A stretch of DNA of 64,000 nucleotides, taken from assembly GCA_963971405.1 (NCBI GenBank), contig OZ020489.1, positions 2,480,001 through 2,544,000 of the forward strand, in the 5' to 3' direction. This stretch comes from Psococerastis gibbosa (lineage: Eukaryota > Arthropoda > Insecta > Psocodea > Psocidae). Under the pieces are notes generated by a model. That model worked only from the letters and a program-made list of their open reading frames with translations, made no database searches and was not told where the DNA came from. A program made the translations under genes and the position numbers. Positions 5,936-43,319 of this stretch are shown here, one piece after another (position 1 is the first letter of the stretch; the number at the start of each line of letters is the position of its first letter).

Positions 5936-7387
5936 TTAATTCCCTATTAATAACTTTTTTTCACAGGCCCTTAGTATTAGCATTTCCTCGCCGATCTTAT
6001 CAGAATGTAAAAATGGCAGCTGATTGAGCAGCGCGTACTGATTGTAATCCTCCGCCATCGTCGATAAATCGTGGCCATGGGACAGAGCGAACAGAGCCAG
6101 TTTGGTCCACGATATCCCGTCAGCAATGTTGATCTCGGCCATTGCAAAATAATACGCCGGAATTCCTGTATGATTATAATTGCTCCCTTTCACTGCGTTG
6201 TATTTATCAAAACAGTGACGCGCCAAATTAAGAGTGTAATAGAAGTTGTACTCTTCAAGCGGAGTAACGCCGTAAGCGGCGGGAAAATTTTTCGAAATAT
6301 CATTATCAGGCGTATCTTCACTAATTTCCGTTATTTTCTTTAGTATGTATTTTTTCTCGGCCACAACCTCTGGCCTTGAGTGGACAAGTGTGCGCAATTT
6401 GAATGAGAAATAATTGGCATCGTAGAGCGGTTTAAATCCGCTGAAGTTGCAAGTCATAGATATTAAACTACCAACAATTGAGTCGCCCCGAAGGGGAGCG
6501 AAGCAACCCCTCACTATGGCGTGTTTGTACTCCGGGTTAGCATTACCTACGGCACAGAGTTTCTCTAAAGCAGCACGGGAAAACATCAAACCTACATGTA
6601 CATTTTCTTCTGCTTTAGTGATTAATTTTATTGCTTCATTATGGTGCTTGTCGAAGCCTTCGGTATCACCTCTAAACAAGTAGTACGTAAGCAAATGTCG
6701 GTTATATATAAAGTTCGTTTTTGTAAACATGGCGCCGTCGTATTGCAAATCACAAGGGAAGAAAATTTTCGTTGTAGACAACAACGACGAAAATTCCATC
6801 GTCATGTTGGGTAGGTGTAGAGTGTCAACAGTCATGTACCACAGTGACACAATTGTTCCGAACCCATACTCTACCATTAACCTCGACCGTACCTTATTGC
6901 CCGACGAAACATGTTTCAAGAAACCTATCGCGCTACTAGCATTGGCTGGGATTTTTGTCTTTGGCGTTGACGGAATTATCACTGAAGGGCAAATTGAGGT
7001 AATAGAACGGGATTTAAAAAATAGAAGTAAGTATTCTGCTGTGGGTGAAATGTTTTTCACACCCTCCATCAGGCTTAACATTTCTTGGCAAGTATCCCTC
7101 TGTAGCACCACACATTTCGTCTCTTTGATGATTTTCCACATTGCGGAATAATATACATTTCGCGTTATTTTAAATGAAAATGGAAGAAGTTCATTGTGTG
7201 GTTTGAGCTGTTCGTCGGTTATGATTATTATGTAATGTTGTTGTACTACCAAATAGTCAACACTTGTTCTGTAACACGGTGACTTCTTTTGCTTTATCGG
7301 CTTTGCACCAAAGTAAAGGCCATTTGTCTTTTGACTCTCTTGTTGTTTGGTGGTTTTCAAAATGACTTTATGGTCCGAAGTATTCAT
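5936..7387 (-). CDS. Nucleoprotein-like family gene A (intronless, 483 aa)
   Basis: A single open frame from ATG (7387-7385) to a stop at 5938-5936. I recognise no cellular domain. Landmarks shared with the other copies, in order, are: YIIIITDEQLKP (near residue 55), KITRNVYYSAMWKIIKETK, TCQEMLSLMEG, ICPSV, YGFGTIVSLWYMTV, FSSLLS, then an asparagine-tyrosine motif (here IYNRH), RLCAVGNAN or a variant (here KLCAVGNANPEYKHAIVRG), CFAPL, FPAAYGVTPLEEY, GIPAYYFAMAE and a C-terminal EDYNQYALLNQLP. There is no signal peptide or membrane segment, so the product is probably soluble and helical. The closest copy is F (EGFGT-type segment, NVHVGLMFSRAAL). The first 30 residues are basic and poorly conserved. 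It carries the shared upstream module at 7490-7690. Viral nucleoprotein ancestry is an inference; it could also be a lineage-specific cellular family. Confidence 0.75.
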   Translation of the reverse strand: MNTSDHKVILKTTKQQESQKTNGLYFGAKPIKQKKSPCYRTSVDYLVVQQHYIIIITDEQLKPHNELLPFSFKITRNVYYSAMWKIIKETKCVVLQRDTCQEMLSLMEGVKNISPTAEYLLLFFKSRSITSICPSVIIPSTPKTKIPANASSAIGFLKHVSSGNKVRSRLMVEYGFGTIVSLWYMTVDTLHLPNMTMEFSSLLSTTKIFFPCDLQYDGAMFTKTNFIYNRHLLTYYLFRGDTEGFDKHHNEAIKLITKAEENVHVGLMFSRAALEKLCAVGNANPEYKHAIVRGCFAPLRGDSIVGSLISMTCNFSGFKPLYDANYFSFKLRTLVHSRPEVVAEKKYILKKITEISEDTPDNDISKNFPAAYGVTPLEEYNFYYTLNLARHCFDKYNAVKGSNYNHTGIPAYYFAMAEINIADGISWTKLALFALSHGHDLSTMAEDYNQYALLNQLPFLHSDKIGEEMLILRACEKKLLIGN

Positions 7388-7489
7388 TTTCGTAGTTGCT
7401 TGAATATAGTGGGGAAATAAACTTTTTAATGCCGTATTAATTTTTAATATTTACTAACGTTGCAAACTGAAGGAAACAGGCCAGTACTT

Positions 7490-7690
7490 GCCAATATCTG
7501 CCTCTGCTGCCATTTGCAAACGCGTGGTACTAGCCAAGCCACTTTCACGCTGGCGCGAACTGAATGAATTTAAAAAGGAAAGCTAAAGCCTTCATTTTAG
7601 GAGCAGCCACGTCCTTTTTTTTCTGTTTATTATCTGACTGCGCAGTTACTTAGTCATATTTATCAGTTAGTTTAATTGACGAGGGTTAGC
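7490..7690 (-). promoter_or_regulatory. Conserved upstream module of family gene A
   Basis: Read on the minus strand: AACTGCGCAGTCAG, then TTTAAATTCATTCAGTTCGC, then GCGCCAGCGTGAAAG, ACCACGCGTTTGCAAATGG, and TATTGGCAAGTACTGGCCTG. The same blocks in the same order precede B, D, E and F. It ends about 105 bp before the ATG, a position that suits a core promoter with the start of the 5' UTR. Confidence 0.65.
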
Positions 7691-7875
7691 AGAACTTACT
7701 ACAGACTGACCGATTTTCTGCATGGAGCTGTTCAAATATATATTATTAAAATAAGTATGGCTTTGTTCCCATGTCCTGTGACGACTCAACTGTACTTGCG
7801 ATGAGTTCATATTATCTTGATTATTGATTCAACGCTTACACACACCCCCACACACCCCCCCCCCCCCCGCCCCCT

Positions 7876-8165
7876 TACTGCAATGTGGAGTTGTGGTACG
7901 GACTCTGACTTTCACCCACCCGAAAGGTTGTTGGTTCGGTCCCACACTGGCTACATTATCTGGCCAGGCCATGCTTCGGAGGGCATGTAAAGCAACACGT
8001 TTATTTTGGTTGTTCTATCTAAATAGGCCTATCTCAAAGTTCCTAGAACTACTGGCAATCCATCAGCAACCCACTGGAAGACGCCAACCAGACCGCTCAT
8101 GGTTATGATACTGTAGTGCTGCAGAATTATACACATACATGTGTATGTATTATAACTCTCTGCTT
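7876..8165 (+). repeat. tRNA-derived SINE
   Basis: The tRNA-like head has an A-box region (GTGGTACGGACTC) and a B box (GGTTCGGTCCC). It is followed by GCCATGCTTCGGAGGGCATG and a longer body ending TATGATACTGTAGTGCTGCA and ACACATACATGTGTATGTAT. It shares head and body with the copy at 17350-17880. Confidence 0.8.
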
Positions 8166-8439
8166 TGGTTGTTCTGCCTCAATATCTAAAAGATGCAAAG
8201 CAATCCATCAGCAACCATGATGTTGATAGTGCTGATCTAACGAGCAGCCACAGATTTTGCGGCCGATGTGTCAATACTTTGCAGATATGCCGCAACTCCA
8301 GGATGCAATTCTTCAAGCTATAGGCGTTCAACCGGATACGGTCCCCGCTAGTAACGCTAATGTACCTAAATGTAATGCTAGAAAAAACGACCGTAGCCAT
8401 TATAACGAATACTTTTTCTAATGACTATTCTTGGAAAGA

Positions 8440-8578
8440 TTGTGTCCCTAATGCCGAGGCCCTGAGGAGAATGGATACAGAAGTCGAGTTGCTGCTGACG
8501 GTTAAGAAACGGAAACTAATATTTTTTGGCCATGTGAGGAACGAAAAATATTGCCTTCCGCATGTTATAGACTAATAC
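8440..8578 (+). mobile_element. Fragment of LINE reverse transcriptase C-terminus
   Basis: The translation includes RRMDTEVELLLTVKKRKL followed by FFGHVRNEKY, the typical end of a CR1/RTE-like reverse transcriptase ORF. The related fragment near 47390-47650 has the same pattern. Only the 3' end is present, as usual for 5'-truncated insertions. Confidence 0.65.
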
Positions 8579-8733
8579 TGTAGTAGACTGTACCTACTAA
8601 CGAAAGTCAATACAAAATGCTCAGCGAATATTGATAAAATTATTGTCACCATGTTTTGAGGTAGGCTACAATGAATTACATGTGGCAGTCACTTACACCG
8701 ATCAACCACTAATATTGAACTTGCACGCGTTGG

Positions 8734-9572: not shown

Positions 9573-9957
9573 AAATTACAGACACTGAAGAAGCCCGGAT
9601 GAAAGGGGTACCAAAACTGTAGCCAATTGGCGATAGTGACGGCCACAAGAATGTTGCCTACTTCGAAATGTGTAGCAGGATCCTTTTATCTCAGGGATTT
9701 CACATTTTATGTAACTTAATTTATAATTCCTAAAAAATGGCTACTTTTGTTATAAAAATAAATAAAAAATAGACCGTGAGTGTTCCAGACTGTCTCTTAA
9801 CAGAGTAACTGTTCCATGCAGCACATTCGTTCGCCAATTTTTCTTAGTATACCTACCAATCAATTTAAAAAAAAAGTACAAAACATAGCAAACATAGCTA
9901 ATCATTTACCAACTAACAACTTCTGGTCACAGTTCTCTTTTCCATTCCTCGTCGATG

Positions 9958-11352
9958 CTATCCGCTCCTTACACCTGGCAACTTATTGATTCGCACGTAA
10001 TCAAAGTACTCCTCCTTCAAAGTCCCTACATCCAGACCGTGGGACTCTGCGAAGTCAGCCAATTGGACCCACGTTAACCCCTCACCAATCTTGACCTCGG
10101 CCATTGCAAAATAATACGCCGGAATCCCTGTACTATTATTATTGTTCCCTTTAATTGCCTTGTGTTCGGCAGAACAATGTCGCGCCAAATTAAGAGTGTA
10201 ATAGAAGTTGTATTCTTCAAGTGGAGCAACACCGTAAGCGGCCGGAAATTTTCTCCGGAAATCACCCCTAATGCAACTAATTTCCATTAATTTCTTCACC
10301 AGGCGCTCCTTCTCTGCCTTAACCTCTGGCCTTGCGTGAACAAGTGTGTCGGAACCGAAAGCGAAACGCTCGGCTTCGCTGAATGATTTAAAGCCGTTGT
10401 AAGCGATACAACTCTGTATAGTGTGTTCAACAATTGGGTCACATTGAAGAGGAGCGAAGCAACTCCTGATTATGGCGTGTTTGTACGCCGGGTTAGCATT
10501 TCCTACGGCGCAGAGTCTCTCTAAAGCGGCTCGGGAAAACAGAAACTCTAAATGTACGCTTTCTGGTACGTTAGCAAGTGTTTTAAAATTATCCATACTC
10601 TGTTGTTGCCAGCACTCTTCGTAGTCTTCGGCGTTACCTTTTAGAAAGCGGTACGTCGCCACGTTCCTGTTATACAGCAGGTTCGTTTTTGTAAATAAGC
10701 CACCGTCGTACTGCAAATCAGAAGGGAAAGTTTTCAAATTTTTCATTATAGACACCAGCGACGAGAATTCTATCATCATATTGGGCAGGTGGGAACTCTC
10801 AACAGTCATGTACCACAGTGAGACAACTACTCCAAACCCATATTCATCCACTAACTCTGGCCGTACCTTATTGTCCGACAAAACATGTTTTACGAAACCT
10901 TTCGCGCTACTTACATTGGCAGGAATTTTTGTGTGTGGCGGAACTACCACTGACGGGCAAATTTGAGGAACATCTCGGGATTTGAAAAATTTCCACAAGT
11001 ATTCTGCTGTGGGTGAAAGGTTTTTCGCGACCGCCATCAGACTCAACATTTCTTGGCAGGTGCCCCTCTGTAGCACCACACATTTAGTGTCCTTGATGAT
11101 TTTCCACATTGCGGAATAATATAAGTTTCGCGTTATTTTAATTGAAAACGGAATAAGTTCACAGAGTGGTTTGAGCTCTTCGTCGGTTATGATTATGATG
11201 TAATGTTGTTTCATTACCAAATTGTCAACACCCGTTCTGTAGTAATAGGACTTCATTGGCTTCGCCGGGGCTTTTTCAAAGTATTGTCCGTCTATCTCTT
11301 GACTTTCCACCTGTCTTTTGGCCTTGAAATTAACTTTCCCAGAGCGATTCAT
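9958..11352 (-). CDS. Nucleoprotein-like family gene B (intronless)
   Basis: The frame is open up to 11409, but the ATG at 11352 starts MNRSGKVNFKAKRQ, which lines up with the starts of E (MNRTGHKINF) and F (MNRSGNKVKL), so I choose it; the product is about 464 aa. It has all the family landmarks: YIIIITDEELKP, KITRNLYYSAMWKI, TCQEMLSLMAVAKN, IPANVSSAKGFVKHVL, YGFGVVVSLWYMT, NLLYNRNVATY, RLCAVGNANPAYKHAI, FPAAYGVAPLEEY, GIPAYYFAMAEVKI. The patch from KCVVLQR to SLWYMT (genomic about 10800-11090) is almost identical in DNA to gene D, while the following segment is diverged, so gene conversion is likely. It is encoded in the same direction as A and divergently from D, E and F. The function is unknown. 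Confidence 0.75.
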   Translation of the reverse strand: MNRSGKVNFKAKRQVESQEIDGQYFEKAPAKPMKSYYYRTGVDNLVMKQHYIIIITDEELKPLCELIPFSIKITRNLYYSAMWKIIKDTKCVVLQRGTCQEMLSLMAVAKNLSPTAEYLWKFFKSRDVPQICPSVVVPPHTKIPANVSSAKGFVKHVLSDNKVRPELVDEYGFGVVVSLWYMTVESSHLPNMMIEFSSLVSIMKNLKTFPSDLQYDGGLFTKTNLLYNRNVATYRFLKGNAEDYEECWQQQSMDNFKTLANVPESVHLEFLFSRAALERLCAVGNANPAYKHAIIRSCFAPLQCDPIVEHTIQSCIAYNGFKSFSEAERFAFGSDTLVHARPEVKAEKERLVKKLMEISCIRGDFRRKFPAAYGVAPLEEYNFYYTLNLARHCSAEHKAIKGNNNNSTGIPAYYFAMAEVKIGEGLTWVQLADFAESHGLDVGTLKEEYFDYVRINKLPGVRSG

Positions 11353-15138: not shown

Positions 15139-15835
15139 TTGATCATTTTTACGAAGAAGCCAGGTAAACGCGCGTGTAGCAGCCGAGTACTTTGACAAAA
15201 TGACGGAACTTTCCAAAACTGAGGACAAAACTTTGGACGTTGCCGATACCATAAAAGAGGTAAGCACCTCTAGCATGGTAATTCCAAAGATTCCCGGCGG
15301 CGTAGGCAGCGCTAAAGGTTTTCTAAAGATGGCACTTTCAACAGGTGACACAATCCCACCTGAATTAGTTGAAGAGTATGGTTTTGGTGTTATCATGTCA
15401 ATGTGGTACATGACAACTGAGTCGAAGCATTTACCTTTGATGATGATGGAATTCTCATCGCTGATGGATCGCGATGAGAGCTATATGGCATTTTCTACAA
15501 CCTACCACTACGAAGCATTTCCCTTGAATAGAAAGAATCTCATGTACAACTGCCATATGGCGACATATTTCTTCTTTAAGCAGACGACCGATGGCTACGA
15601 TGAGGCGGTTGTTGAGTGTAGTCAAGAGCATGGTGAAAATGAGACAGACCCTGCGGAAAAAGTTGCTCCGATGTTTACTGGCCCTGGCATAGAGCGGCTG
15701 TGCGCGCTTTCAATTGCCAATCCAAAGTATAGAGAGGCCATTGTTCGCTGCTGCTTTATACCCTTGAAACACGACAGGCTGGTGAATTACACCATTCAAG
15801 CGCTTCAAAATGAATGTCAACTCATCATTCCGTAA
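15139..15835 (+). pseudogene. Nucleoprotein-like family gene C, truncated at both ends
   Basis: The frame is open from about 15139 (after a TGA) to the TAA at 15833-15835; the first ATG is at 15200 (211 codons). Homology to the family starts upstream of that ATG with VAAEYF. It continues through GSAKGFLKMAL, YGFGVIMSMWYMTTES, HLPLMMMEFSSL, NLMYNCHMATYFFF, RLCALSIANPKYREAIVR and CCFIPLKHD, then stops shortly after NYTIQAL. The TCQEML-type N-terminal third and the whole C-terminal FPAAYG to YYFAMAE half are missing. The residues look closer to G than to the A/B/D/E/F group. It could still be translated as a short protein, but I read it as a decayed copy. Confidence 0.65.
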
Positions 15836-17340: not shown

Positions 17341-17349
17341 CTACTACAA

Positions 17350-18312: not shown

Positions 18313-18422
18313 CAATAGGTCAGTGAATATTTATTATTGACATTTTCGAGTTGATTTCCTCGATATATTCAATCAAGTGTATAATGTACTACAAAAATTA
18401 ATCTTTTAACCATAATGTTAAT

Positions 18423-19784
18423 ATGGAAACCACAGGGCAAGCTAAAAGTCAAAAGATATCAGATGGCCCATTCTCCGAGGAAAACCAGACGAAGTCAAAG
18501 CAGTCCTTCCATTATAGAACGAGTGTTGACAATTTGGTAATGAAACAACATTACTTAATAATCATAACCGATCAACAGCTCAAACCACTCAATGAACTTA
18601 TTCCATTTTCATTTAAAATAACGCGAAATTTATATTATTCCGCAATGTGGAAAATCATCAAAGAGACGAAATGTGTCGTGCTACAGAGGAACACCTGTCA
18701 AGAAATGTTGAGTCTGATGGCGGTCGCGAAAAACCTTTCACCCACAGCAGAATACTTGTGGAAATTTTTCAAATCCCGAGATGTTCCTCAAATTTGCCCG
18801 TCAGTGGTAGTTCCGTCACACACAAAAATCCCTGCCAATGTAAGTAGCTCGAAAGGTTTCGTCAAACATGTTTTGTCGGACAATAAGGTACGGCCAGAGT
18901 TAGTGGATGAATATGGGTTCGGAGTAGTTGTCTCTCTGTGGTACATGACTCTTGAGAGTGAACGCATACCCAATTTGATGATGGAATTCTCGTCGTTGGT
19001 TTCTCTTATGAAAAATTTGATAACTTACCCTTCTGACTTGAAATCAGACGGCGACTTATTTAGAGAGGCGAACCTGGTGTATAACAGAACTGTAGCGACG
19101 ATCAACTTTTTTAAAGATTACGCCGAACCCTTGGATGAACCGGAACCTGGTGCCTGGAAACTATTTGCTAAAGTACCGGACGGCGTGCATTTAAGGCTGA
19201 TGTTTTCCCATGCTGCTTTAGATAGACTGTGCGCCGTAGGAAATGCTAACCCGGCGTACAAACACGCCATAGTCAGGGGTTGCTTTGCTCCCCTTCAGCT
19301 CGACCCAATCGTTCGATTCACTTCAGCAACTTGCCACGCTTACAATGGCTTCAAATCGTTGGGCGAAGCGTTTTGTTTTTCCTTCGGTTCCATAACGCTT
19401 GTCCACACGAGGCCTGAGGTTCGGGCCGAGAAATGCCACATCGAGCGGAAATTATTGGAAATTATTAGTATTGGCGCTTCCTTCCCAGAATCATTTCCTG
19501 CCGCTTATGGCGTTGCTCCACTTGAAGAATACATCATTTATTACACTCTTACTTTGGCGCGACATTGTTCTGGCAAACACAATGCAATTAAAGGGAACAA
19601 TAATAATAGTACAGGGATTCCGGATTATTATTTTGCAATGGCCGAGGTTGACATAGCTGACGGGATGACGAGGACCGCATTGAGCGATTTCGCTGAGTCC
19701 CACGGTCTAGATCTAGAGATCATAGCGGAGGAATACAATACATACGCGCTTAGCAATAACTTGCCAAGTCTACGGATCGCATAA
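18423..19784 (+). CDS. Nucleoprotein-like family gene D (intronless, 453 aa)
   Basis: One open frame from ATG to TAA. Landmarks by residue: LIIITDQQLKP 45-55; KITRNLYYSAMWKIIKETK 65-83; TCQEMLSL 91-98; ICPSVVVP 124-131; KIPANVSSSKGF 135-146; YGFGVVVSLWYM 164-175; MMEFSSLVS 186-194; NLVYNRTVAT 217-226; a variable patch 228-250; RLCAVGNANPAYKHAIVRG 268-286; CFAPLQ 287-292; FPAAYGVAPLEEY 358-370; YYFAMAEVDIADG 402-414; EEYNTYALSNNLPSL at the end. There is no signal peptide, membrane helix or known catalytic motif. The 3' flank (AAGATCGTAG...GGCGGCAT) matches that of E, so the duplicated unit included the 3' UTR. It shares a converted patch with B. Role unknown; if derived from a viral nucleoprotein it may bind RNA or interfere with related viruses, which is speculation. 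Confidence 0.78.
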   Translation: METTGQAKSQKISDGPFSEENQTKSKQSFHYRTSVDNLVMKQHYLIIITDQQLKPLNELIPFSFKITRNLYYSAMWKIIKETKCVVLQRNTCQEMLSLMAVAKNLSPTAEYLWKFFKSRDVPQICPSVVVPSHTKIPANVSSSKGFVKHVLSDNKVRPELVDEYGFGVVVSLWYMTLESERIPNLMMEFSSLVSLMKNLITYPSDLKSDGDLFREANLVYNRTVATINFFKDYAEPLDEPEPGAWKLFAKVPDGVHLRLMFSHAALDRLCAVGNANPAYKHAIVRGCFAPLQLDPIVRFTSATCHAYNGFKSLGEAFCFSFGSITLVHTRPEVRAEKCHIERKLLEIISIGASFPESFPAAYGVAPLEEYIIYYTLTLARHCSGKHNAIKGNNNNSTGIPDYYFAMAEVDIADGMTRTALSDFAESHGLDLEIIAEEYNTYALSNNLPSLRIA

Positions 19785-23619: not shown

Positions 23620-25014
23620 ATGAATCGTACTGGGCATAAAATCAATTTCAAAAGTAAACGAAAAGTAGAAAGTCAAAAGACAGAACAACTATACTTTGAG
23701 GAAAACCCGACGAAGCCAATGAAGGCCTTGGACTACAGAACTAGTGTTGACTATTTGGTAATTAAAAAGCATTTCATCATAATCATAACCGACGAACAGC
23801 TCCAACCACCCAGTGAACTTGATCAATTTTCATTTAAAATAACAAGAAATTTATATTATTCAGCAGTGTGGAAAATCCTTGCTGACACGAAATGTGTCGT
23901 GCTGCAAAGGAGCACCTGCCAAGAAATGGTAAGCCTGATGGCAGGCGCGAAAAATCTTTCCCCTACGGCTGAATACTTGTGGAAATTTTTCAAAACCCGA
24001 GATATTCCCCCAATTTGCCCAGCAGTGGTAATTCCACCAGAAATAAAAATTCCAGCCAATGTAAGTAGCGCGAAAGGCTTCATAAAACATGTTTTGTCCG
24101 ACAATAATGTACGGCCAGACGTAATGAATGAGTATGGGTTCGGAGTAGTTGCCTCACTGTGGTACTTGACTGTTGACAGTCCCCACCTTCCCGATATGAT
24201 GATGGAATTCTCCTCGTTAGTGTCTACTATGAAAAGTTTAATTAACTTCCCCTCTGATTTGCAACACGGCTGTGACTTGTTTTCAAAACCGAATCTGGTG
24301 TTTAACCGAAACCTAGCGACGTTCTACTTGTTTAAAGGTAACGCTGAAGACTTCAAGGGCTGGGAACAACGGAGTATCAATAATTTTAGAATTGTTGCCA
24401 ACATACCGAAAGATGTACATTTAAGGTTTATGTTTTCCCATGCTGCTTTAGAGAGACTCTGCGCCCTTGGAAATGCTAACCCGGAGTACAAACACGTCAT
24501 AGTCAGGGGTTGCTTCGCGCCCCTTCAGAGCGATCTACTTGTTTACCAGGTCACAAAATTGTGCAACCCTTACAACGGCATTGAATCGTTCCTCGAAGCG
24601 GAGCAATTTGCCTTCGGTCCCGCCACGCTTGTCCATACAAGGCCTGAGTTTCGGGCAGAAAAAGGCCGCATTTTGATGAAATTGGCGGAAATTTATAAAT
24701 ATGATGGTGACATCCCGAAAAAATTTCCTGTCGCTTACGGTTTTACTCCACTTGAAGAATATAACTTTTTTTACACTTTTAACTTGGCGCGTCACTGTTG
24801 TGGAGAATACAAGGCGGTGAAAGGGAGCATTTGTAATCATACAGGGATTCCGGCGTATTATTTTGCAATGGCTGAGATTAATATTGAAGACGGGATCACG
24901 TGGTCCGAATTGGCCAAGTTCGCCAAGTCCTACGGTCAAGATTTAATGACCGTGGCTGAAGAATATACTATATATGCGCTTCACAATGACAAGCCAGATA
25001 TACGGCGCGGCTAA
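23620..25014 (+). CDS. Nucleoprotein-like family gene E (intronless)
   Basis: The frame is open from 23497, but that part crosses the conserved upstream module. The ATG at 23620 gives MNRTGHKINFKSKRKVESQ, matching the starts of B and F, and a product of 464 aa. It has all the landmarks: FIIIITDEQLQP, KITRNLYYSAVWKI, TCQEMVSLMAGAKN, IPANVSSAKGFIKHVL, YGFGVVASLWYLTV, MMEFSSLVSTMK, NLVFNRNLATFYLF, RLCALGNANPEYKHVIVRG, FPVAYGFTPLEEY, GIPAYYFAMAEINI. The N-terminus is lysine-rich. Its 3' flank is homologous to D just after the stop, and further downstream (25555-25720) to the flank of G. The function is unknown. Confidence 0.78.
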   Translation: MNRTGHKINFKSKRKVESQKTEQLYFEENPTKPMKALDYRTSVDYLVIKKHFIIIITDEQLQPPSELDQFSFKITRNLYYSAVWKILADTKCVVLQRSTCQEMVSLMAGAKNLSPTAEYLWKFFKTRDIPPICPAVVIPPEIKIPANVSSAKGFIKHVLSDNNVRPDVMNEYGFGVVASLWYLTVDSPHLPDMMMEFSSLVSTMKSLINFPSDLQHGCDLFSKPNLVFNRNLATFYLFKGNAEDFKGWEQRSINNFRIVANIPKDVHLRFMFSHAALERLCALGNANPEYKHVIVRGCFAPLQSDLLVYQVTKLCNPYNGIESFLEAEQFAFGPATLVHTRPEFRAEKGRILMKLAEIYKYDGDIPKKFPVAYGFTPLEEYNFFYTFNLARHCCGEYKAVKGSICNHTGIPAYYFAMAEINIEDGITWSELAKFAKSYGQDLMTVAEEYTIYALHNDKPDIRRG

Positions 25015-26401: not shown

Positions 26402-27784
26402 ATGAATCGTTCTGGAAATAAAGTCAAGTTAAAAGTCAAAAGACAAGTAGAAATTCCAAAGATAAACGGACCATACTGTCAGGAACCCCCGACAAAGCCA
26501 ATGTATCCCAGAACGAGTATTGACAATTTGGTAATGAAACAACATTACATAATAATCATAACCGACGAACAGCTCAAACCACTCAATGAACTTATTCTAT
26601 TTTCAATTAAAATAACGCGAAATGTATATTATTCAGCAATGTGGAAAATCATCAAAGAGACGAAATGTGTGGTGCTACAGAGGGAGAACTGCCAAGAAAT
26701 GTTAAGCCTGATGGAGGGTATGAAAAACCTTTCACCCACAGCAGAATACTTGTGCAAAATTTTCAAATCCCGTGCTATTCCCCCAATTTGCCCGTCAGTG
26801 GCACTAATTCCGACAAAGCCCGAAACAATAATCCCAGCCAATGTTAGTAGCGCGAGAGGTTTCGTAACACATGTTTTGTCGGACAATATGGTACGGCCGG
26901 AGTTAATGGAAGAGTATGGATTTGGAACAATTGTCTCATTGTGGTACCTGACTGTTGAGAGCACAAATAGTATGATAAAGGAATTCTCTGCTTTGGCAAC
27001 TGTAACAAAAAGTTTCTTCCCTTCTGATTTGCAATGCGACGACGCCTTGTTTAACACGACGAACCTGATGTATAACAGATCCATTGCAACGTCGTACATG
27101 TTTAAAGGCAACGTCGAAGACTTCGATCAGGAAAAACTACAGGACAGTGCTGATAGTTTCAGATTTCTAACAAACTTAGTGGGGAACGTACATGTAGGTT
27201 TGATGTTTTCCCGTGCTGCTTTAGAGAGACTCTGCGCCGTTGGAAATGCTAATGAGGCGTACAAACACGCCATAGTCAGGGGTTGCTTTGTGCCCCATAA
27301 GGACGACGACATTATTCGACATACCGCAGAGATGTGCCGCGAACACGGCGGCTTTCAATCGTTCATCGAGGCGCAGAAATTTTCCGTCGGCTCGTTGAGA
27401 CTGGTCCACACAAGGCCAGAGGTTCGGGCCGAAAGAGAGTGCATAAAGAAGAAATTGAGGGAAATTTGTAATATTGATGGCCATTACCCGCGAAGATTTC
27501 CTGCCGCTTATGGAGTTGATCCACTTGAAGAATATAACTTCTATTACACTCTTAATTTGGCGCGACACTGTTCTGGCACACACGAGGCATCGAAAGTAAA
27601 TGATGATACAGGGATTCCGGCGTATTATTTTGCAATGGCCGAAGTCGACATAGCTGACGGAATAACTTGGACCGAAATGGCCAATTTCGCTGAGTCCCAC
27701 GGTCTTGATGTAAGGGCCATGGTGGAGGAATATAATCAATTGGCTCGACTCAATCATTTGGCCCATCTATCCATAGACTATTAG
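26402..27784 (+). CDS. Nucleoprotein-like family gene F (intronless, 460 aa)
   Basis: One open frame from ATG (MNRSGNKVKLKVKRQVE, basic) to TAG. It has the family landmarks YIIIITDEQLKP, KITRNVYYSAMWKIIKETK, CQEMLSLMEGMKN, IPANVSSARGFVTHVL, YGFGTIVSLWYLTV, NLMYNRSIATSYMF, RLCAVGNANEAYKHAIVRG, CFVPH, FPAAYGVDPLEEY, GIPAYYFAMAEVDIADG. It lacks several residues in the HLPNMMMEF region (NSMIKEF instead) and has FVPHKDDD where others have FAPLQ. It is closest to A (MEG, FGTIV, NVHVGLMFSRAAL) although A lies 19 kb away in the opposite orientation. Long open frames on its opposite strand (for example 27221-27766) mirror the conserved sense codons and are not called. Confidence 0.78.
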   Translation: MNRSGNKVKLKVKRQVEIPKINGPYCQEPPTKPMYPRTSIDNLVMKQHYIIIITDEQLKPLNELILFSIKITRNVYYSAMWKIIKETKCVVLQRENCQEMLSLMEGMKNLSPTAEYLCKIFKSRAIPPICPSVALIPTKPETIIPANVSSARGFVTHVLSDNMVRPELMEEYGFGTIVSLWYLTVESTNSMIKEFSALATVTKSFFPSDLQCDDALFNTTNLMYNRSIATSYMFKGNVEDFDQEKLQDSADSFRFLTNLVGNVHVGLMFSRAALERLCAVGNANEAYKHAIVRGCFVPHKDDDIIRHTAEMCREHGGFQSFIEAQKFSVGSLRLVHTRPEVRAERECIKKKLREICNIDGHYPRRFPAAYGVDPLEEYNFYYTLNLARHCSGTHEASKVNDDTGIPAYYFAMAEVDIADGITWTEMANFAESHGLDVRAMVEEYNQLARLNHLAHLSIDY

Positions 27785-28181: not shown

Positions 28182-31100
28182 CAGTGTTGCCAAACTGGAA
28201 TGTTTAGTTTCCATGAGATCATAGCATGAGATTCGTAAAAAAACATGAGAAATTTCCCAACGCAGTTAGCGTTAAAATAATAATAATTGGTGACCCTTAA
28301 CTGAAAAACTAGATTGTTAGGCCTACTTATGCGCTCTCAAAATTACGGATTAAGGTTTTAGTTGCTCAATTCAAATACCTAAGAATTATAACGTTTTGTT
28401 AAGGCCAGACCGTACCCCTATGAATCATCGGGCACACATTGTACACTTCAAAAATTAATATCAGCTAAACTGCTAAAGTATTAATTTCGAAGTGATTATT
28501 TTTGTGCTATTACATAGTAAAGTAAATGTGTAGGCCTATCTTTATTCAGAGTTTTCAAGTATGGCTGTATTGTGATTCCTTACTGATTTGATGATGAAGA
28601 CGCGAATTTTTCACCATAATTCGTTCAATTTTTTACGCCTTCAATTCGGATACAAATCACAATACAGCAGTAAATAGAAATGCTGAATAAATATACATAG
28701 GCCTACATATCTACTTTAGTGTGTAACACAAAAATTATCACTTCCAAATTGATATTTTTGCTGATAGGCTATTAATTTTTAAAGAGTGCGATTTGTCCCT
28801 AATAGGGGTCCGGTCTGGCCTTAAAACATTTCAACATTATTTTAACGTTTAAACAAGCTTATGACGTAGGCTATGTAAAAAATGGTGTCCAACCAATTAA
28901 AAACAACAAATTCATGTTCACAATAGCCTATATAATTACACAAGTAACGTAAAATTGTGAATTAACTAATCGTACATTTTACTATTACATTTATCAAGCA
29001 TATTTGGTGCAATTTTTAGTTTGTAACAGGGATTTTCTCCAATGTATGACTTTGCAAGAAGAAGTCCTTTTATAGTTGATAGGTCCAACCTATTTCTGGT
29101 TTTCAATTTTATCAGGTTGACACTGGAAAATACTCTCTCACAAGCCGCGCTTGAGTGTGGCAGACTAAAAATATTTTCCACAAAAGATTCTAGACTTTTA
29201 AATGGATAGCTGCTATCAGCTCTTTGAATCTTCCCAACTTCTTTCCAGAATTCTGTGCAGGTTAATCTGCTACTTCCTCCAATATCAATGTGGCTTGTGA
29301 TAAGCTCCCTATACTCCTGGTCAATAATTTCAATTTCCCTATCTTCATAGGGAAACTTTACCGCCAATGGAGCAATGGAAGGGAATTTTCCACTTTTAAT
29401 GTTTATGGGGTCGATCATCTCCAGCAGATCCAGGCGATCATCAGTTGGAAACCTTTTAAACATTTGATCTGTTAACTCTATGTAAAAGTTAAGGCAGTTG
29501 ACAAGAAATTTACCTTTTTCTTCTCTGTCCAAGTTGGGCAGAAATACTGCTAGCTTCGAACCCAAGTACATATTTTCAATAGAGAGAAAATGGCTGCGGT
29601 TTTTGTACTGTGTCGCCAGAATGTCCAGTGGAATATATTTCCGGTCTAAAAAATTATGTAGGACAACTCGCAAACCATCAGTTATAGTTTTTTTTAAGTG
29701 GTGGATTTGCGGCCGTTCCGCTTGAAATTGTCTATTCAGCTTATTAACAATTGGAAGAATGTAGTCAAGAAACATTATGTATGCTTTGGTTGTAGAATTC
29801 AAGGAATTAAATATAAATTCGGCTTGCAAGTCTTTTTCACTGTCGAAAACAACATCCGTAAAAACAATTTAAGGGCATCCCATTGCTCCAGAAGCCTTGA
29901 TATCACAGCCTCTAATGATAACAAGCGAGTAGCACTTGGGTGCAGTATCTTCTGTGGCTTTACATTTACAAAGTTTTGAAATTCTTTCAATGCAGCCGTT
30001 CTTTTCGGACTGCAACTAAAATAGTTATAAACACATCTGGTAAACTGTTCAACATATGGTGGTAATTTTTTACACGCATACGATGCACACAAATGAAATG
30101 AGTGGCAGATACATTTCATCACGAACAATTTCGGGAGTTGTTGTGTAAATTTTTGTTGAACTGAATTATTACCTCCCATCATGACACTTGCACCATCAGC
30201 GGCGAAACCAATCATATTTTGGCGCCATGGAATGTTCTTACTTTCCAAAGCCTGGACAACTGTGTCAAACAGCGTCTGGGAATCAGCATTATGAATTTTT
30301 ATTAAGTCAAAAAATATATCTTCAACTTCATGATTGTTGACAGTTGTACGTATGACTATGCACATGCTCTTTTCGTTTGACAAGTCGGTCGACTCATCAA
30401 TCATCAGTGAAAACTTACGTGTTTTCAATATTTCAATTAATATCTCTTCTTGCGTTAAACCAATTACATTGGTCACCAACTTCGTGCACTTGGTTCTACC
30501 ACACGTTAATTTTTGGGCGACTTTTGACTCAGGACAGATCTCCTTAATTAAATTTGGAATGTGTTCTGCTGCCAAAAATGATAAATTGTGTTCAGCTACA
30601 TAGGCAGCAATTTTTAACTCTGCAGCCTTAACATCTTTATCTGAACTCCCTGATGTGGAGGCCAATGCGCTTCTAATGTCTTTAACTCCAACAATTGACT
30701 TGGCCTTTAAGATGTGAGTATTTGATTCACTGTGCCTTTCTAGGCTTGTTTTACCAGCGAGTATGCTAATTTCTGTATCACAAGCCTTACAGTGTGCAAA
30801 ATGCACTCCCTTTCTGCTGGAAGTTAACCAGTGTTTAAACAGTGCATTGTCTTCCCAGTCTTTTTTATAGCACTGTCCATGCCTTGCTTTAGGGGGCATC
30901 TTAACTTAATAGAGCAGAACAACACTACACTATTAAAAAAACTAATACTTATGAAAAATGAATACGCTACACAGAACAAAATCTGAATAATAATAATAAA
31001 CAAGGAATAAAATCAAAATGGCGTTCGATTCGAGATTTCGACTTTCGAGAATCGCCAGAAATCAGAAGTGGGAAATTTAAGAAGAATGGGGTCACCAATT

Positions 31101-32430: not shown

Positions 32431-32439
32431 GTGGAATTC

Positions 32440-37271: not shown

Positions 37272-38567
37272 ATGTCAAAACCAATCGATCCGGCGACAGT
37301 CCTTACCAGCTTCACTTTAATACTAACTGACACTTTCTTAATAGAAGAAGGCTTACAAATATTCCGTTTGAAAATTTCTGGAAGAGCCAAATATGCCGGA
37401 ATATGGAAACTCATGAATAACAGCATGGTTGCCATAGAAAAAAATACGTGTCAAGAGATTCTCACCATGATACTACGGGTTTCTAAGGAAACCATGATCA
37501 CCGGAAGAACGGCACAAATCCAAGAAATATTTCTGTCCAAAGGCATTCTGCCACATTGTCCAAGCTATCGGGTCAAACCTATTATTGGAATACCTGCCAA
37601 TGTAGGCAGTTCGAGGGGTTTCTTGGAGAAAGTAATGGGGGATTCCACGTCTAGTATAAGAGAAGAGGCAGTGGAAGAATGCGGCTTCGGTATCATTGCC
37701 GCACTGTGGTATATGACAAGCGAGAGTAAATATTTGCCAAACATGATGGCCGAATTTAGCTCTCAAATGGTTGACGCCCATAGCTTATACGCGTTCCCAG
37801 CTCAGTTTGTATACAGCGAATGCTGCTGGACAAGAGAAAATCTCCTGTATAACCGCCACTTACTGACGTATTATTTCCTCAAAGGAAACCCCGAAGGGTT
37901 TAGAGAGAGGAGACATGCTGGCGAATTTCGCAAAGTTCTTAATTGCACCGATAAAACGCCACTGTGCTCATTTTTAGCTGAGTACGGCATTAGAAGCCTG
38001 TGTGCGATGAGCGTAGCTAACCCTGAATACAAGGGGGCCATAGTTCGTGCTTGCTTTGTGCCTTTGCAACACGATCCAGTTGTTCAATTTACTATCAATG
38101 ACAGCCGTGACACGGACTGTGATGGTTTTCTAGCTTTCCGCGAAGCCTATGAGTTTTCCCAGCATCACACACTCGCTCATATGCTACCACAAGTTCAAGA
38201 GGAGAAAACACGTTTGGAAGAGAAAATGAAAGAGATTGATAAGCTTGACGATTGTTGTAAAAAAAGGTTTGCAGGGTATTTTGGTGTAGAGCCTATACCT
38301 GAAAAAGACATAGAGCTGTGTTTTAAATTAGGTCGCCATTTGAGGGGAATAGGAGGCTTAAAGAGCAAAAATGACAAGGGAGAGATTGTAGATGAGCAGT
38401 TAGCCATGGCTGAGATAGATATCGCTTTCGGTATAACGCAGGAAGAGTTGAACGCGTTTGCGAAGAGTACTACACCTAAACAGAATGGCAGTAAGCTAGC
38501 TATTGCCTACAACAAGTATGCTAGTGCGAACAACTTGCCGCAGCTGCATAAAAAGAAAGGAAAATAG
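37272..38567 (+). CDS. Divergent nucleoprotein-like family gene G (431 aa)
   Basis: One open frame from ATG (MSKPIDPATVLTSF) to TAG. It aligns with the A-F group through TLILTD, FRLKISGRAKYAGIWKLM, NTCQEILTMI, IPANVGSSRGFLEKVM, CGFGIIAALWYMTSES, LPNMMAEFSSQM, NLLYNRHLLTYYFLKGNPEGF, SLCAMSVANPEYKGAIVRA, CFVPLQHDPVVQFTI, FAGYFGVEPIPE, QLAMAEIDIAFGIT and YNKYASANNLPQL. Identity is clearly lower than within A-F, and the C-terminus is lysine-rich (HKKKGK). A strong splice acceptor (TTTTTCTTTTCAAACAG, to 37258) sits 13 bp before the ATG, suggesting a 5' UTR intron not seen at the other genes. The A-F upstream module is absent. AATAAA occurs at about 38649. The function is unknown. Confidence 0.75.
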   Translation: MSKPIDPATVLTSFTLILTDTFLIEEGLQIFRLKISGRAKYAGIWKLMNNSMVAIEKNTCQEILTMILRVSKETMITGRTAQIQEIFLSKGILPHCPSYRVKPIIGIPANVGSSRGFLEKVMGDSTSSIREEAVEECGFGIIAALWYMTSESKYLPNMMAEFSSQMVDAHSLYAFPAQFVYSECCWTRENLLYNRHLLTYYFLKGNPEGFRERRHAGEFRKVLNCTDKTPLCSFLAEYGIRSLCAMSVANPEYKGAIVRACFVPLQHDPVVQFTINDSRDTDCDGFLAFREAYEFSQHHTLAHMLPQVQEEKTRLEEKMKEIDKLDDCCKKRFAGYFGVEPIPEKDIELCFKLGRHLRGIGGLKSKNDKGEIVDEQLAMAEIDIAFGITQEELNAFAKSTTPKQNGSKLAIAYNKYASANNLPQLHKKKGK

Positions 38568-38984
38568 GTTGAGGGATGAGCTTTTTTCAATTGAGTAATT
38601 ACTTGTTTATCTTAGCCGGGGTAAGTGGACCATCGATTATACTTTCGAAATAAATGTAAGAAATGTTGCTTATTAAAGGAATGTTGCAATTTTTAAATGT
38701 GACAGACTTGACTTTTTACAATACCTTATTTAAGACAATCGTATCGACAACACCGTCAGGCGGTGAAAAATTAAATCCAACTTTACAGGAAATATCCATA
38801 TAGAGCCGTAAAAGTGATAGAAGCCTTATACTCCAGTTTTGGAACTCCATCGATCTGACATCCTTAGATTTTTTAAAATCAAGTTGACTAACTGCAGCGC
38901 ATCCGTGCTATAGTGACGGCCACATGGTGTGCATCAAAATGCAGGGAAACATTTTTTCTGCTTTATACCGTCGATATTACATGT

Positions 38985-39425: not shown

Positions 39426-39502
39426 ACGAGCAGAAAATTCACGGTTTATTATTTTATATTATAATAATATAAATAATATAATAATATGAATATATTATTA
39501 TA

Positions 39503-41172
39503 ATTTACGATTCCGAGATTTCAACGGATTTACACGTTTTGAGGTCCCAGGAACCCAAAAATGTGTTTTTTACGAAATTTCTGTCGGTCGCTCTGTCAGT
39601 CCATCAATTTCCGGACAAACTACTCGGTCGATTTTAATGAAATTTAGCATGTAGGTTCACAAAAATCATACCTCGGGACCATTTTTATCATTATTTTGGG
39701 CTAACTCAATTGGGGGGGTTTTATTCTCAAAAAACGTCTAAAAAAATTATTTCTCAAAAACGGCTCCAACGATTTCTTTTAAATTTACAAATTTTGTAGT
39801 CATTATTAATGTTAAAAAAAAATAAAAATAACTCAATTTTAATGAAAAATGACTAAAAAATAATTTTTCTGCAGGCCTAGAACCTTTCTATCGATGATTT
39901 CTACCTTCAGGCACGTTTTAGGTGTTAAATTGAGTAACGAAACCGGACAGGTTGCTTTCCCAAAAAAATTTTTGGTTTTGTGCAAAAAATGTTTTTTTGC
40001 TTTCCAATTTATACGTAGTATAAGGAAAGCTTTGTGATGGTCCAAATTTTCGATCCGAGATTTGAGGTCCCAGGAACCCAAAAAAGTGATTTTTACGAAA
40101 TGTCTGTCTGTCGCTCTGTCTGTCTGTTCATCAAATTCAGGGCAAACTACTCTGTCGATTTTGATGAAATGGTCCCAGGAACCCAAAAATGTGTTTTTTA
40201 CGAAATTTCTGTCAGTCGCTCTGTCTGTTCATCGATTTCCGGACAAACTACTCGGTCGATTTTGATGAAATTTAGCATGTAGGTTCACAAAAATCATACC
40301 TCGAGACCATTTTTATTTTATTTTGGGCTAACTCAATTTGGGGGGGTTTCATTCTCAAAAAACGTCTAAAAAAGTATTTCTCAAAAACGGCTCCAACGAT
40401 TTCCTTTAAATCTACACATATTGTAGTCGTTATTAATGTTCACGAAATGCGGGGGGTTGCATGCCCCTTGATAGTTTGCTTCTGGGGGTAAAATAATCAG
40501 AATAACTAAATATTATTGAAAAATGACTAAAAAAAATAATTTTTCTGCAAAACCTTTCTATCGATGATTCATACCTTCAGGCATGTTTTAAGTGTTAAAT
40601 TGAGTAACAAAACCTGACAGGTTGCTTTCCCAAAAAACTATTTAATTTTGTGCAAAAAAAATGTTTTTGAAAAAATTAAAATTCACGCTCAAATGCATTG
40701 CGTTCCCTGCCATTACTGCTGTGTGGTAATGTAATGTAATGTCTGACCTATCTAGAATTTACCTAGAATTTACTTCACCTCCAGTGACGTCAGGTGGACC
40801 CCCCCCCCCAAGATGTCCGACATTTAACTATAGGAAAATTATTTACCATGAAATTACTCATTTTCTCTGTGTACTAATTGATAAATTCGAAAGCATGTTC
40901 GAGTAAACTCGGACAGGTTCTTTTTTAAATGATAGAAAATTCACGCTCAAATGCGTTGCGTGCCCTGCCATTATTGCTGTGTGGTAATGTGTTGGCCTGA
41001 CATATCTAGAATATACCTCACCTCCAGTGACGTGAGGTGGACACCCCCCCCCCCCTCCCGAGATATCTGAAATTTAACCATAGAAAAATTATTTACCATG
41101 AAATTACTAATTTTCTCTATCTACTAATTGATAAATTGGAAAGCATGTTTGAGTAAACTCGGACCGGTTCTT
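39503..41172 (+). repeat. Dispersed repeat family X, three partial copies in tandem
   Basis: A 5'-truncated copy (39503-39996) starts within GATTCCGAGATTTCAACGG. A near-complete copy (39997-40924) runs from TTGCTTTCCAATTTATACGT to AAACTCGGACAGGTTCTT. A 3' fragment (40925-41172) ends AAACTCGGACCGGTTCTT. Part of the middle of the second copy is duplicated around 40165-40235. Confidence 0.8.
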
Positions 41173-42062
41173 ACAAATTTATTTTAGTCTGAGTGTCATC
41201 GCAAAAGGGGGTTGGACAGGCAATTTTATGTTCATCAACTTTTATTTACAGTGGAACTAGGCTAACCAATGGCGTAAATACCTAATGAAATTAATTTTCA
41301 ACCATCGAAAAATCCATTTTTTTTTCAGGGCCCTTTTTTTAGCATATCCCGTTAGAGTGTGTGAAAAAGCCCTAATAAAACTTGAACAGAAGCTGTGCCG
41401 ACATGTGAACGCAAGTTCAGTTTATTTCACTGAAAAACTTCATTTTGATTCATAACTAAACAAGTTGTAATTTTCATACGCGAGTTGTGAAGAAGTGAAA
41501 CTGACAAGAATCTTTATTAAATATTATAAAATATGGCACCAACTGTCAAGCAGAGTGATCGAACACCTACTACAAAGTAGCAGGATAAAGTACTCAAAAA
41601 GTCAGAAGAGAAGAGCATTAAATAACAATTGTTTGCTAACAAGTAGTAGGAGACCTGACAGGAATAAATAAAAAAAATAGTTTAATAAATGACACATCTT
41701 GATTAGGAAGCCAATTTTTGACCTACTAGGTAGTTTTATGAGACGTGAGACGTAGTGTACCTTAAAGTGTTCTGTCTATTTCTTTCAAATATTGCATCGA
41801 AGCGTTCGCCTATTTCTTAAACCGTTGACCAGAGTGATCGAACACATGGAAGGTACAGTACTCAAGAAGCCTAAACAATAACAGATTGCAAATTCCCTTA
41901 TCTACCGACTAGGTTTCTGAGACTGGAATCTTTGAACCTAGAAGTGTTCTATTTCTTCAACTGATGTGCAGAGTGATCACAATACCCAGCACAGTACATA
42001 CTCAAGAACAAAAGAAAAGTATTGAAGTTAAAGTTTACACTATTATTTCCCAGGCACGTACC

Positions 42063-43319
42063 ATGTCCTTTGTGGATTACATTCAATATAAGAAATACGA
42101 CCTAGTAATACCAGAAGATTTACCCCCCAAAGACGTAACCATTTTTGATGTTTACGTCGCAGGCGACGCTAAATTTAGGGGCGAATGGGTAATTATGAAC
42201 GATACGAAAACTGTCGTAATTACAAGAACCACTTGCCAGGAATTGCTGTCAATGATAGTAGTTGCTGCAGACAAGGGCCGATCTTGCACCAAACAAGCCA
42301 AATTCATACGAGAAACGTTAAATGCCAAAAATGTCCCGGTATTTTGCCCCACATTCTCGAATGAAATGGTTGTTGAAATCCCTGCAGATGCCGGCAGCGC
42401 TAAAGGGTTTCTTAAAACTTTGCTCACGGAAGACAACAAGATACACCCGATGCTAATTTATGAACTTGGGTTTGGTGTAGTCGCAGCGTTATGGTATATG
42501 ACCTCAGAACCCCAATACCTGCCAAAAATGATAAAGGAATTCTCAATTCTGTTGGAAGAACCGAGCTTGACGGTTAGTTACCCAACAGATACACAATACA
42601 ATGAATTTCCATTTACAAGGGCAAATTTACTTTACAACCGTCATATAACATCTTACTATATGTTCAACTTCAACTTCGATCGCTACTGCGAATGGGTTAC
42701 ATGTGATTATGGACCTTTCTACGCTGTTGCAGCTCAACTCAATGAAACTGTGAAACCGTTATTTTGTGCCGAGGGTATACGGAGACTTTGTTCATTCACA
42801 TTTGCAAATCCAGAGTACAGAAATGCTCTAGTACGTGGATGTTTCGAACCCATGCAAGGTGTCCCTCTAGTGGAATATCTTATAGAATTATGCTATGATG
42901 TACAAATCCTTCACGCCCATGACTTTGCGGTGAATTATCATACGTTTGCACATGTACTACCTTTTATTCAAGAGGAAAAAAAAATTCTGATTACGTACAT
43001 GGAACAAATGAACACTATTCAAGACGATTTTCAAAGAAAATTTCCTGCAGCTTATGGGAAGAAGCTTCCGCCGCCTATTAGTTACCACTGCTGTTGGAAA
43101 TTGTACAAGTACCGCAGAGGACAGCTGTCAGATCACATTATTACTGGAGAATCGCTTACACTTTTCAAAATGGCGGATGTGAGTATTGAGAAAGGGTTAA
43201 CGTATGATGAAATAGTTGATTTGGCAAAAAGAATTAACCAGAACGTTGATGTTCTTCTGACTTCATACAATAACTATGCAATGTGTAACAGTTTGAAAAC
43301 TGCTGAGAAAGTTACATAA
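42063..43319 (+). CDS. Divergent nucleoprotein-like family gene H (intronless)
   Basis: The frame is open from an ATG at 41964, but the ATG at 42063 (MSFVDYIQYKKYD) aligns better with the family N-terminus and gives 418 aa; either start is possible. Landmarks: FRGEWVIMNDTK, TTCQELLSMI, IPADAGSAKGFLKTLL, LGFGVVAALWYMTSEP, YLPKMIKEFSILL, NLLYNRHITSYYMF, RLCSFTFANPEYRNALVRG, CFEPMQGVPLVEYLI, FPAAYGKKLPPPI, KMADVSIEKGLTYDEIVDLA, YNNYAMCNSL. With G it defines a second, older branch. The 5' region (41540-42000) contains three imperfect AGAGTGATCGAACAC repeats. No shared upstream module is present. Confidence 0.72.
   Translation: MSFVDYIQYKKYDLVIPEDLPPKDVTIFDVYVAGDAKFRGEWVIMNDTKTVVITRTTCQELLSMIVVAADKGRSCTKQAKFIRETLNAKNVPVFCPTFSNEMVVEIPADAGSAKGFLKTLLTEDNKIHPMLIYELGFGVVAALWYMTSEPQYLPKMIKEFSILLEEPSLTVSYPTDTQYNEFPFTRANLLYNRHITSYYMFNFNFDRYCEWVTCDYGPFYAVAAQLNETVKPLFCAEGIRRLCSFTFANPEYRNALVRGCFEPMQGVPLVEYLIELCYDVQILHAHDFAVNYHTFAHVLPFIQEEKKILITYMEQMNTIQDDFQRKFPAAYGKKLPPPISYHCCWKLYKYRRGQLSDHIITGESLTLFKMADVSIEKGLTYDEIVDLAKRINQNVDVLLTSYNNYAMCNSLKTAEKVT

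What the first reader, a model, noticed from the sequence alone, without database searches (positions are those of the whole stretch)
5936..43319. Array of eight related intronless genes with no recognisable cellular homology, possibly of RNA-virus nucleoprotein origin
Genes A-H share about 20 ordered motifs (TCQEM, YGFG...LWYM, YNR, NANPxYK, AAYG, AMAE), a common length of about 420-480 aa and no introns, while the neighbouring conserved genes have introns. Seven are open over full length despite deep divergence, so they appear maintained. A soluble helical protein of this size, multicopy and intronless, without cellular relatives, fits a domesticated nucleocapsid gene of a negative-strand RNA virus (for example borna-, nyami- or chuvirus-like) expanded by duplication. 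That origin is inference. If right, it would be a candidate paralogue cluster for RNA binding or antiviral interference.
Basis: partly seen in the sequence, partly recalled or inferred. Interest (0 to 1): 0.9.

Follow-up and report, generated by a model that had tools for sequence, protein, structure and literature searches.

The report
Tandem genes resembling viral nucleoproteins
An animal chromosome carries a row of eight related genes, seven with intact single reading frames, whose distant relatives elsewhere in the same genome look like inserted fragments of RNA-virus nucleoprotein genes, so they may be captured viral genes that the animal multiplied and now evolves rapidly, perhaps as virus decoys.

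Summary
In detail: A-H are one family, seven full-length open frames (431-483 aa) and one truncated copy (C, 211 aa), between a histone-fold gene and MED24/ERCC1. The genome holds a second cluster of seven copies on another contig (five lack the C-terminal part), one more full-length copy and a broken one. No library searched gives a relative, but other animals' genomes and RNA-virus proteins were not searchable. The viral reading gains support from inside the genome: three partial N-like pieces lie on other contigs, two of which match the family profile (E 3e-16, 8e-13). Two pieces share 529 bp and no flanks, and diverged under strong constraint (dS 0.67, dN 0.025); one adjoins a segment of a high-copy retroelement-like polyprotein. 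RNA-virus genes insert this way. The five close array genes instead have w 0.46-0.68 and a site class with w 4-5, mainly in the C-terminal third (2dlnL 42.5; 0 of 60 simulations come near). Best reading: nucleoprotein-derived host genes, duplicated and diversifying against a moving partner; antiviral interference is inferred, not shown.

The parts
5936..7387 (-). copy A, 483 aa open frame
9958..11352 (-). copy B, 464 aa open frame; shares a converted tract with D
15200..15835 (+). copy C, truncated copy (211 aa frame covering the middle)
18423..19784 (+). copy D, 453 aa open frame; the start codon used by A, B, E and F reads ATT here and the frame opens at an ATG 26 nt downstream
23620..25014 (+). 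copy E, 464 aa open frame
26402..27784 (+). copy F, 460 aa open frame
37272..38567 (+). copy G, 431 aa open frame, 33-36% identical to A, B, D, E, F; acceptor-like site just upstream (by eye)
41964..43319 (+). copy H, 451 aa open frame, 28-35% identical to the other full-length copies
28966..30905 (-). hAT-type transposase pieces lying inside the array, not part of the family
   Evidence: Dimer_Tnp_hAT 1.1e-06; DUF4371 below its cut-off
3494..3703 (+). host stretch with a histone-fold domain, left flank of the array
   Evidence: CBFD_NFYB_HMF 3.9e-05
48181..53049 (-). exon stretches of the host gene MED24, right flank of the array
   Evidence: Med24_N in 3 of the 4 stretches tested here
59227..60326 (+). 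exon stretches of the host gene ERCC1
   Evidence: Rad10 8.1e-10; HHH_5 1.6e-08, assigned to ERCC1 by position and recall

Best explanation
The array is a host multigene family that descends from the nucleoprotein (N) gene of a negative-strand RNA virus. An N messenger was reverse-transcribed by a retroelement and inserted long ago, then the gene was duplicated as DNA, together with a short upstream stretch, into this array, a second cluster on another contig and one lone copy. The copies are kept open by purifying selection on a core, exchange sequence by gene conversion, and diversify at a subset of sites, mostly in the C-terminal third. Most likely working (inferred): N-like host proteins join or poison the N-RNA complex of an incoming relative of the ancestral virus, as reported for the bornavirus-like N of ground squirrel, and the fast-changing C-terminal region follows the viral partner. 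Shown: family, genome copies, maintenance, diversifying selection at a subset of sites, one gene-conversion tract, homology to inserted N-like pieces. Inferred: that those pieces are viral N, expression, RNA binding, antiviral action.
For: Family and copies: (20 matches: 8 in the window, 1 further full-length frame on C14, 7 in a C2 cluster, 3 pieces of one broken copy on C3, 1 on C12). Maintenance. Homology of up to about 290 bp upstream and at most about 20 bp past the stop among A, B, D, E, F points to DNA duplication. N-like pieces: the profile of 16 members finds C12 (3.1e-16) and C19 (7.7e-13) among 3000 shuffles whose best is 1.8; in reverse, the C12 piece finds 6 family members in the genome, best 6.7e-6. 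C12 and C13 share 529 bp, 87% identical, and no flanks, with w 0.037 over 114 codons. The stretch directly before the C12 piece has 150 scored matches in the genome (279 candidates), many in frames of 1700-1800 aa, whereas the N-like piece has one close copy; so the polyprotein's other copies do not carry it. Selection: M1a/M2a 2dlnL 42.5, M8a/M8 44.4; with their own branch lengths the two fast regions give 13.6, p 0.001; simulations: 0 of 30 with uneven rates reach 41.3 (largest 9.1), 0 of 30 homogeneous (largest 4.1). Precedent for the mechanism: PMC10741599, passages.
Against: No direct match to any viral N: Pfam, none among 19 sequences; PDB sequences; 5.8 billion proteins, three searches; IMG/VR. 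A Rhabdo_ncap locus and a polymerase fragment of this genome also find nothing in IMG/VR, so that collection is no test. The fold was not predicted. The C13 piece alone does not match the family (hhalign probability 1.9); it is tied in only through C12. The contrast in w holds against the ten close pairs only: 12 of 18 pairs with G, H or C give w 0.11-0.41 (dS 1.9-5.8, near saturation) and 6 give no value. Rate unevenness alone makes 4 of 30 simulations exceed 5.99, and gene conversion (B-D), which can inflate site tests, was not simulated. The N-terminal and middle thirds alone are not significant (p 0.12, 0.06), and the C2 cluster only weakly (p 0.02). Five of seven C2 copies lack the C-terminal part. 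PMC11398700 (passages) reports positively selected sites in a disrupted NP-like element too; PMC12282059 (passages) argues that N and L elements are less likely to be kept. No expression data.
Confidence: 0.58

Rival explanations
1. A cellular family of unknown function (for example lineage-specific immune or reproductive genes) that evolves fast; the C12, C13 and C19 pieces are retrocopies of old, slowly evolving members of it, not viral.
For: No viral match by sequence; fast evolution and clusters are usual in such families; other animals' genomes could not be searched; deep pairs with G, H or C have lower w estimates (0.11-0.41), so slower members are conceivable.
Against: The C12/C13 pieces diverged under w 0.037; the ten close array pairs have 0.46-0.68 and the C2 cluster M0 0.51. 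They share no flanks, and one adjoins a high-copy polyprotein segment. Pieces this far from every family member still have frames of 217-296 aa, so they probably evolved as coding sequence until shortly before insertion. No intact, slowly evolving source gene was found.
Confidence: 0.22
2. Of viral N origin, but used for something other than fighting viruses, for example packaging host RNA or a developmental role.
For: Conserved basic positions (G254 in 18 of 18 rows, G259 in 16 of 18) could be a kept RNA-contact surface (positions only); knock-down of human EBLN1 is reported to inhibit cell growth (PMC4848891, title and start of abstract in a listing).
Against: Diversifying selection and copy-number growth fit conflict better than housekeeping.
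Confidence: 0.2
3. The copies are separate viral insertions, not duplicates of one gene.
For: G, H, C, the C2 cluster and the lone C14 copy are about 28-44% identical to the close five, so separate captures from related viruses cannot be excluded for them.
Against: A, B, D, E, F share upstream non-coding DNA; the seven C2 copies form one clade (support 92) in one cluster and orientation.
Confidence: 0.1
4. Relics without protein function, kept at most as a source of small RNAs against viruses.
For: C is truncated, the C3 copy is broken and five of seven C2 copies lack the C-terminal part; small RNAs from an endogenous nucleoprotein-like sequence are reported in a dog whelk (PMC6085071, passages).
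Against: The five simulated frames stay open against 6.3-10.5 expected stops each; 41-47% of codons fall in a class with w about 0.1.
Confidence: 0.05

Closest known systems
[quoted passage not shown]
   Same: Host genes derived from a viral N; itEBLN is reported to be incorporated into the viral RNP and to appear to affect polymerase activity (PMC10741599, passages).
   Different: No bornavirus N match here; here two clusters, a gene-conversion tract and a class of sites under diversifying selection.
Yeast tandem gene family derived from a totivirus capsid gene
   Same: A virus structural gene turned into a tandem host family with products that appear antiviral (named in the introduction of PMC11398700, passages).
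   Different: Different virus type; here the source virus family is unknown.
Filovirus NP-like and VP35-like open reading frames in mammals
   Same: Frames from negative-strand virus genes kept by purifying selection (PMC11398700, passages).
   Different: Recognisable by sequence there, not here; no arrays are mentioned in the passages read.
Chuvirus-derived elements in horseshoe crabs
   Same: Negative-strand virus genes duplicated and transcribed in an invertebrate (PMC12282059, passages).
   Different: Those are recognisable by sequence, mostly glycoprotein, with some polymerase pieces.

Membership tests
Endogenous bornavirus-like nucleoprotein | sequence match to bornavirus N (PF06407) | tested here: not met
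   not among the families matched by any of 19 members at E<=10. The genome search rang nowhere, controls included, so it adds nothing.
Rhabdovirus nucleocapsid | sequence match to Rhabdo_ncap (PF00945) | tested here: not met
   not matched by any of 19 members; no profile match with four Rhabdo_ncap loci of the same genome, which do match PF00945.
Chuvirus, nyamivirus or lispivirus nucleoprotein | sequence or fold match to a member | not testable with these tools
   no reference sequences held; structure prediction failed and was switched off
Co-opted non-retroviral endogenous viral element | descends from a viral gene | tested here: inconclusive
   homologous to N-like pieces that look inserted through RNA, but no virus matches those pieces
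Co-opted non-retroviral endogenous viral element | lies in a host chromosome among host genes | tested here: met
   histone-fold stretch, MED24, ERCC1; a 46.5-Mb contig
Co-opted non-retroviral endogenous viral element | frame kept by selection | tested here: met
   (A, B, D, E, F)
Co-opted non-retroviral endogenous viral element | expressed | not testable with these tools
   no transcript data held
Virus restriction-factor multigene family | positive selection at a subset of sites | tested here: met
   (A, B, D, E, F); gene conversion, found, was not modelled
Virus restriction-factor multigene family | blocks a virus | not testable with these tools
   bench work needed

The most novel reading that the evidence does not exclude
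An invertebrate or other animal keeps a germline repertoire of decoy nucleoproteins: at least 16 virus-N-derived loci in two clusters and a lone copy, diversified by duplication, gene conversion and positive selection in the C-terminal part, each tuned to poison the N-RNA complex of a different negative-strand virus.
Probability: 0.33. Interest if true: 0.85.

Novelty: new variant of a known kind. Interest (0 to 1): 0.63.

Why it matters
Capture of viral nucleoproteins is known to me mostly as single genes or relics. A tandem, gene-converting, positively selected family would make protein-based interference by captured N genes directly testable in an animal, and would show hosts building a repertoire out of a viral structural gene. 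It also suggests an ancient virus lineage whose N is not recognised by the family models searched here.

Tried and rejected
Sequence searches for known relatives gave nothing: Pfam (only weak, unrelated hits), PHROGs (two weak hits), NCBIfam (weak hits only), PDB sequences (none, or weak hits to DsbG, designed proteins, proteasome subunits and others), 5.8 billion proteins, IMG/VR. IMG/VR was then shown to be no test, since a Rhabdo_ncap locus of this genome (Pfam 2.7e-28) and a polymerase fragment also find nothing there.

Relation to rhabdovirus N: the best hhalign alignment of one comparison puts the family's YNRH helix on the DYCR helix of the genome's Rhabdo_ncap loci, but at probability 0.1; rejected as evidence. 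The L fragment on C13 is rhabdovirus-like, but nothing ties it to this family.

Retrocopy origin of A, B, D, E, F from one another: rejected because homology reaches upstream of the start and hardly downstream. Retroelement domains beside the C12 and C13 pieces by Pfam: not confirmed (DUF1759 below its cut-off); replaced by the copy-number test, whose query ends near the junction, so it cannot show by itself where the similarity stops. Calling that stretch a BEL/Pao-type polyprotein is recall and comes from no call. A guess by eye that 769-984 is a RETREG exon was not confirmed (no family). The host species was not identified. Paper searches listed nothing that by title or start of abstract describes such an array; of the listed papers four were opened, in passages only.

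Full report
What is there. Eight places in 5936-43319 encode one protein family. A and B lie on the minus strand, C to H on the plus strand. Seven are full-length frames of 431-483 aa; C is a 211-aa remnant of the middle. A, B, D, E and F are 58-71% identical; G and H are 28-36% identical to the other full-length copies. The family lies between a histone-fold stretch (3494-3703) and MED24 (matches in 48181-53049, 3 of 4 stretches tested) and ERCC1 (59227-60326); a hAT-type transposase lies inside the array.

Copies elsewhere. The window is part of contig C14 of a 409-Mb genome in 68 contigs. A search with copy D gives 20 matches: the eight of the window, one further full-length frame on C14 at 4.565 Mb (43% identical), seven on C2 at 47.74-47.83 Mb, all on the minus strand, three pieces of one broken copy on C3, and one distant piece on C12. 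Five of the seven C2 copies lack the C-terminal part; in one of them the frame runs on for 1194 aa, its second part a KSP-AAK-type repeat. In a tree of 18 of the 19 sequences (the C13 piece left out), A, B, D, E, F form a clade (support 87) with the C14 copy as a weakly supported sister (64), and the C2 copies form a clade (92). Searches of the genome with copy H and with a C2 copy did not complete, so the copy number is a lower bound.

Maintenance. Random substitution at 0.15-0.25 per site would leave on average 6.3-10.5 in-frame stops in each of A, B, D, E, F; at most 2 of 1000 replicates had none, in 15 settings. Pairwise dS among these five is 0.34-0.57, dN 0.19-0.29, w 0.46-0.68, ten pairs. 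Of the 18 pairs that involve G, H or C, 12 give w 0.11-0.41 at dS 1.9-5.8, near saturation, and 6 give no value.

How they multiplied. Alignments between A, B, D, E, F, with 2-kb flanks included, run up to about 290 bp upstream of the start and at most about 20 bp past the stop (upstream alignment). Retrocopies would be expected to show the opposite, so this looks like duplication of DNA with its upstream region. B and D share a run of 37 polymorphic sites (0 of 1000 shuffles as long), a mark of gene conversion; with the 74 silent codons alone there is no significant signal (p 0.35). dS varies along the gene from 0.34 to 0.68.

Selection. A class of 9-10% of sites with w 4.3-4.7 improves the fit: M1a/M2a 2dlnL 42.5, M8a/M8 44.4. 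Five sites have posterior above 0.95 under M8, four of them in columns 306-370. In thirds, only the C-terminal third is significant alone (24.1, p 6e-6; the others p 0.12 and 0.06). Columns 306-370 plus 431-491, with their own branch lengths, give 13.6 (p 0.001), and 14.9 on a star tree; the rest gives 6.1 (p 0.047). Away from gaps (383 codons) the value is 37.0. The C2 cluster, six of its seven copies, gives 7.7 (p 0.02). Control: data simulated under the no-positive-selection model, 30 with the observed kind of rate unevenness and 30 without, fitted with fixed relative branch lengths; none reaches the observed 41.3, largest 9.1 and 4.1, but 4 of the 30 uneven ones exceed 5.99, so weak values should be distrusted. 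Gene conversion was not simulated. A published caution: site tests found positively selected sites in a disrupted filovirus NP-like element as well (PMC11398700, passages).

What they come from. No library gave a relative, and no collection of animal genomes or of RNA-virus proteins was available, so absence of relatives means little. The genome itself gives the lead. The C12 piece (282-aa frame) finds the C13 piece (95% identical over 116 residues), a C19 piece and six family members. A profile of the 16 family sequences scores C12 at 3.1e-16 and C19 at 7.7e-13, with the best of 3000 shuffles at 1.8; the C13 piece, which holds mainly the N-terminal half, is not found by itself. C12 and C13 share 529 bp, 87% identical, and nothing in the flanks; the stretch lies within C13's frame and runs about 160 bp beyond C12's present frame. 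Over 114 codons dS is 0.67, dN 0.025, w 0.037: they diverged as strongly constrained genes and were inserted separately. The stretch directly upstream of the C12 piece, reaching to within about 25 bp of overlap with it, belongs to a polyprotein with 150 scored matches in the genome (279 candidates), many in frames of 1700-1800 aa, while the N-like piece has a single close copy, on C13. A retroelement message joined to a foreign message during reverse transcription is a known route by which RNA-virus genes enter genomes (general knowledge). This does not prove that the pieces are viral N. No known virus was matched, and a retrocopy of a slowly evolving host gene would look similar, though no such intact gene was found.

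The genome has met negative-strand RNA viruses: 47 matches to the mononegaviral polymerase model, one of them best to VSV L at 2.8e-60, and four Rhabdo_ncap loci. The array family shows no profile match with these Rhabdo_ncap loci, so it is not simply rhabdovirus N.

Likely working. The family keeps a core common to the array, the C2 cluster and the N-like pieces, including basic positions G254 (18 of 18 rows) and G259 (16 of 18), while the C-terminal third of the close five changes fast. I think it most likely that these are nucleoprotein-derived host proteins that enter or poison the N-RNA complexes of viruses related to the ancestral one; itEBLN is the precedent (PMC10741599, passages). Confidence is about 0.7 for viral N origin, 0.85 for maintained fast-evolving host genes and about 0.45 for antiviral interference as the function. 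Against it, PMC12282059 (passages) argues that N and L elements are less likely to benefit the host than glycoproteins.

Novelty. Captured N genes and a tandem family from a totivirus capsid are known (PMC10741599 and PMC11398700, passages). A gene-converting, positively selected N-like array in an animal was not seen in the listings of eight paper searches of an open-licence library. I file it as a new variant of a known kind, provided the viral origin holds.

Noticed in passing
G000:C20:15613694-15722263: 46 of 47 matches to the mononegaviral polymerase model (PF00946) lie in about 110 kb, often spaced about 1458 bp: a mononegaviral polymerase fragment seems to have become a tandem satellite.
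   Followed up: partly
L050, L051, L052, L053 (G000 C14:10.17, C14:43.98, C14:38.20, C19:31.61 Mb): Four Rhabdo_ncap loci, two with open frames of 488 and 423 aa; C14:10.17 and C19:31.61 are 89% identical in protein over 263 codons while silent sites are saturated, so they diverged under strong constraint.
   Followed up: partly
L048 (G000:C13:17957501-17960500): Polymerase fragment, 247-aa frame, best match VSV L at 2.8e-60.
   Followed up: partly
G000:C2:47762346-47765927: A C2 family copy continues in an open 1194-aa frame with a long KSP-AAK-type repeat tail, a possible new architecture.
   Followed up: no
L010, L025, L029, upstream of three C2 copies: A TGACGTCA (CRE-like) word about 70-90 bp before the start in three of seven C2 copies; read by eye.
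   Followed up: no
18397-18425: Copy D has ATT where A, B, E and F have the start ATG and opens at an ATG 26 nt downstream.
   Followed up: partly
L033 (G000:C3:6568001-6578000): A broken family copy interrupted by a retrotransposon-like frame that, by eye, also occurs in the C2 stretch.
   Followed up: partly
1823-2107 and 40066-40271: Two tandem repeat arrays, periods 87 and 101 bp.
   Followed up: no
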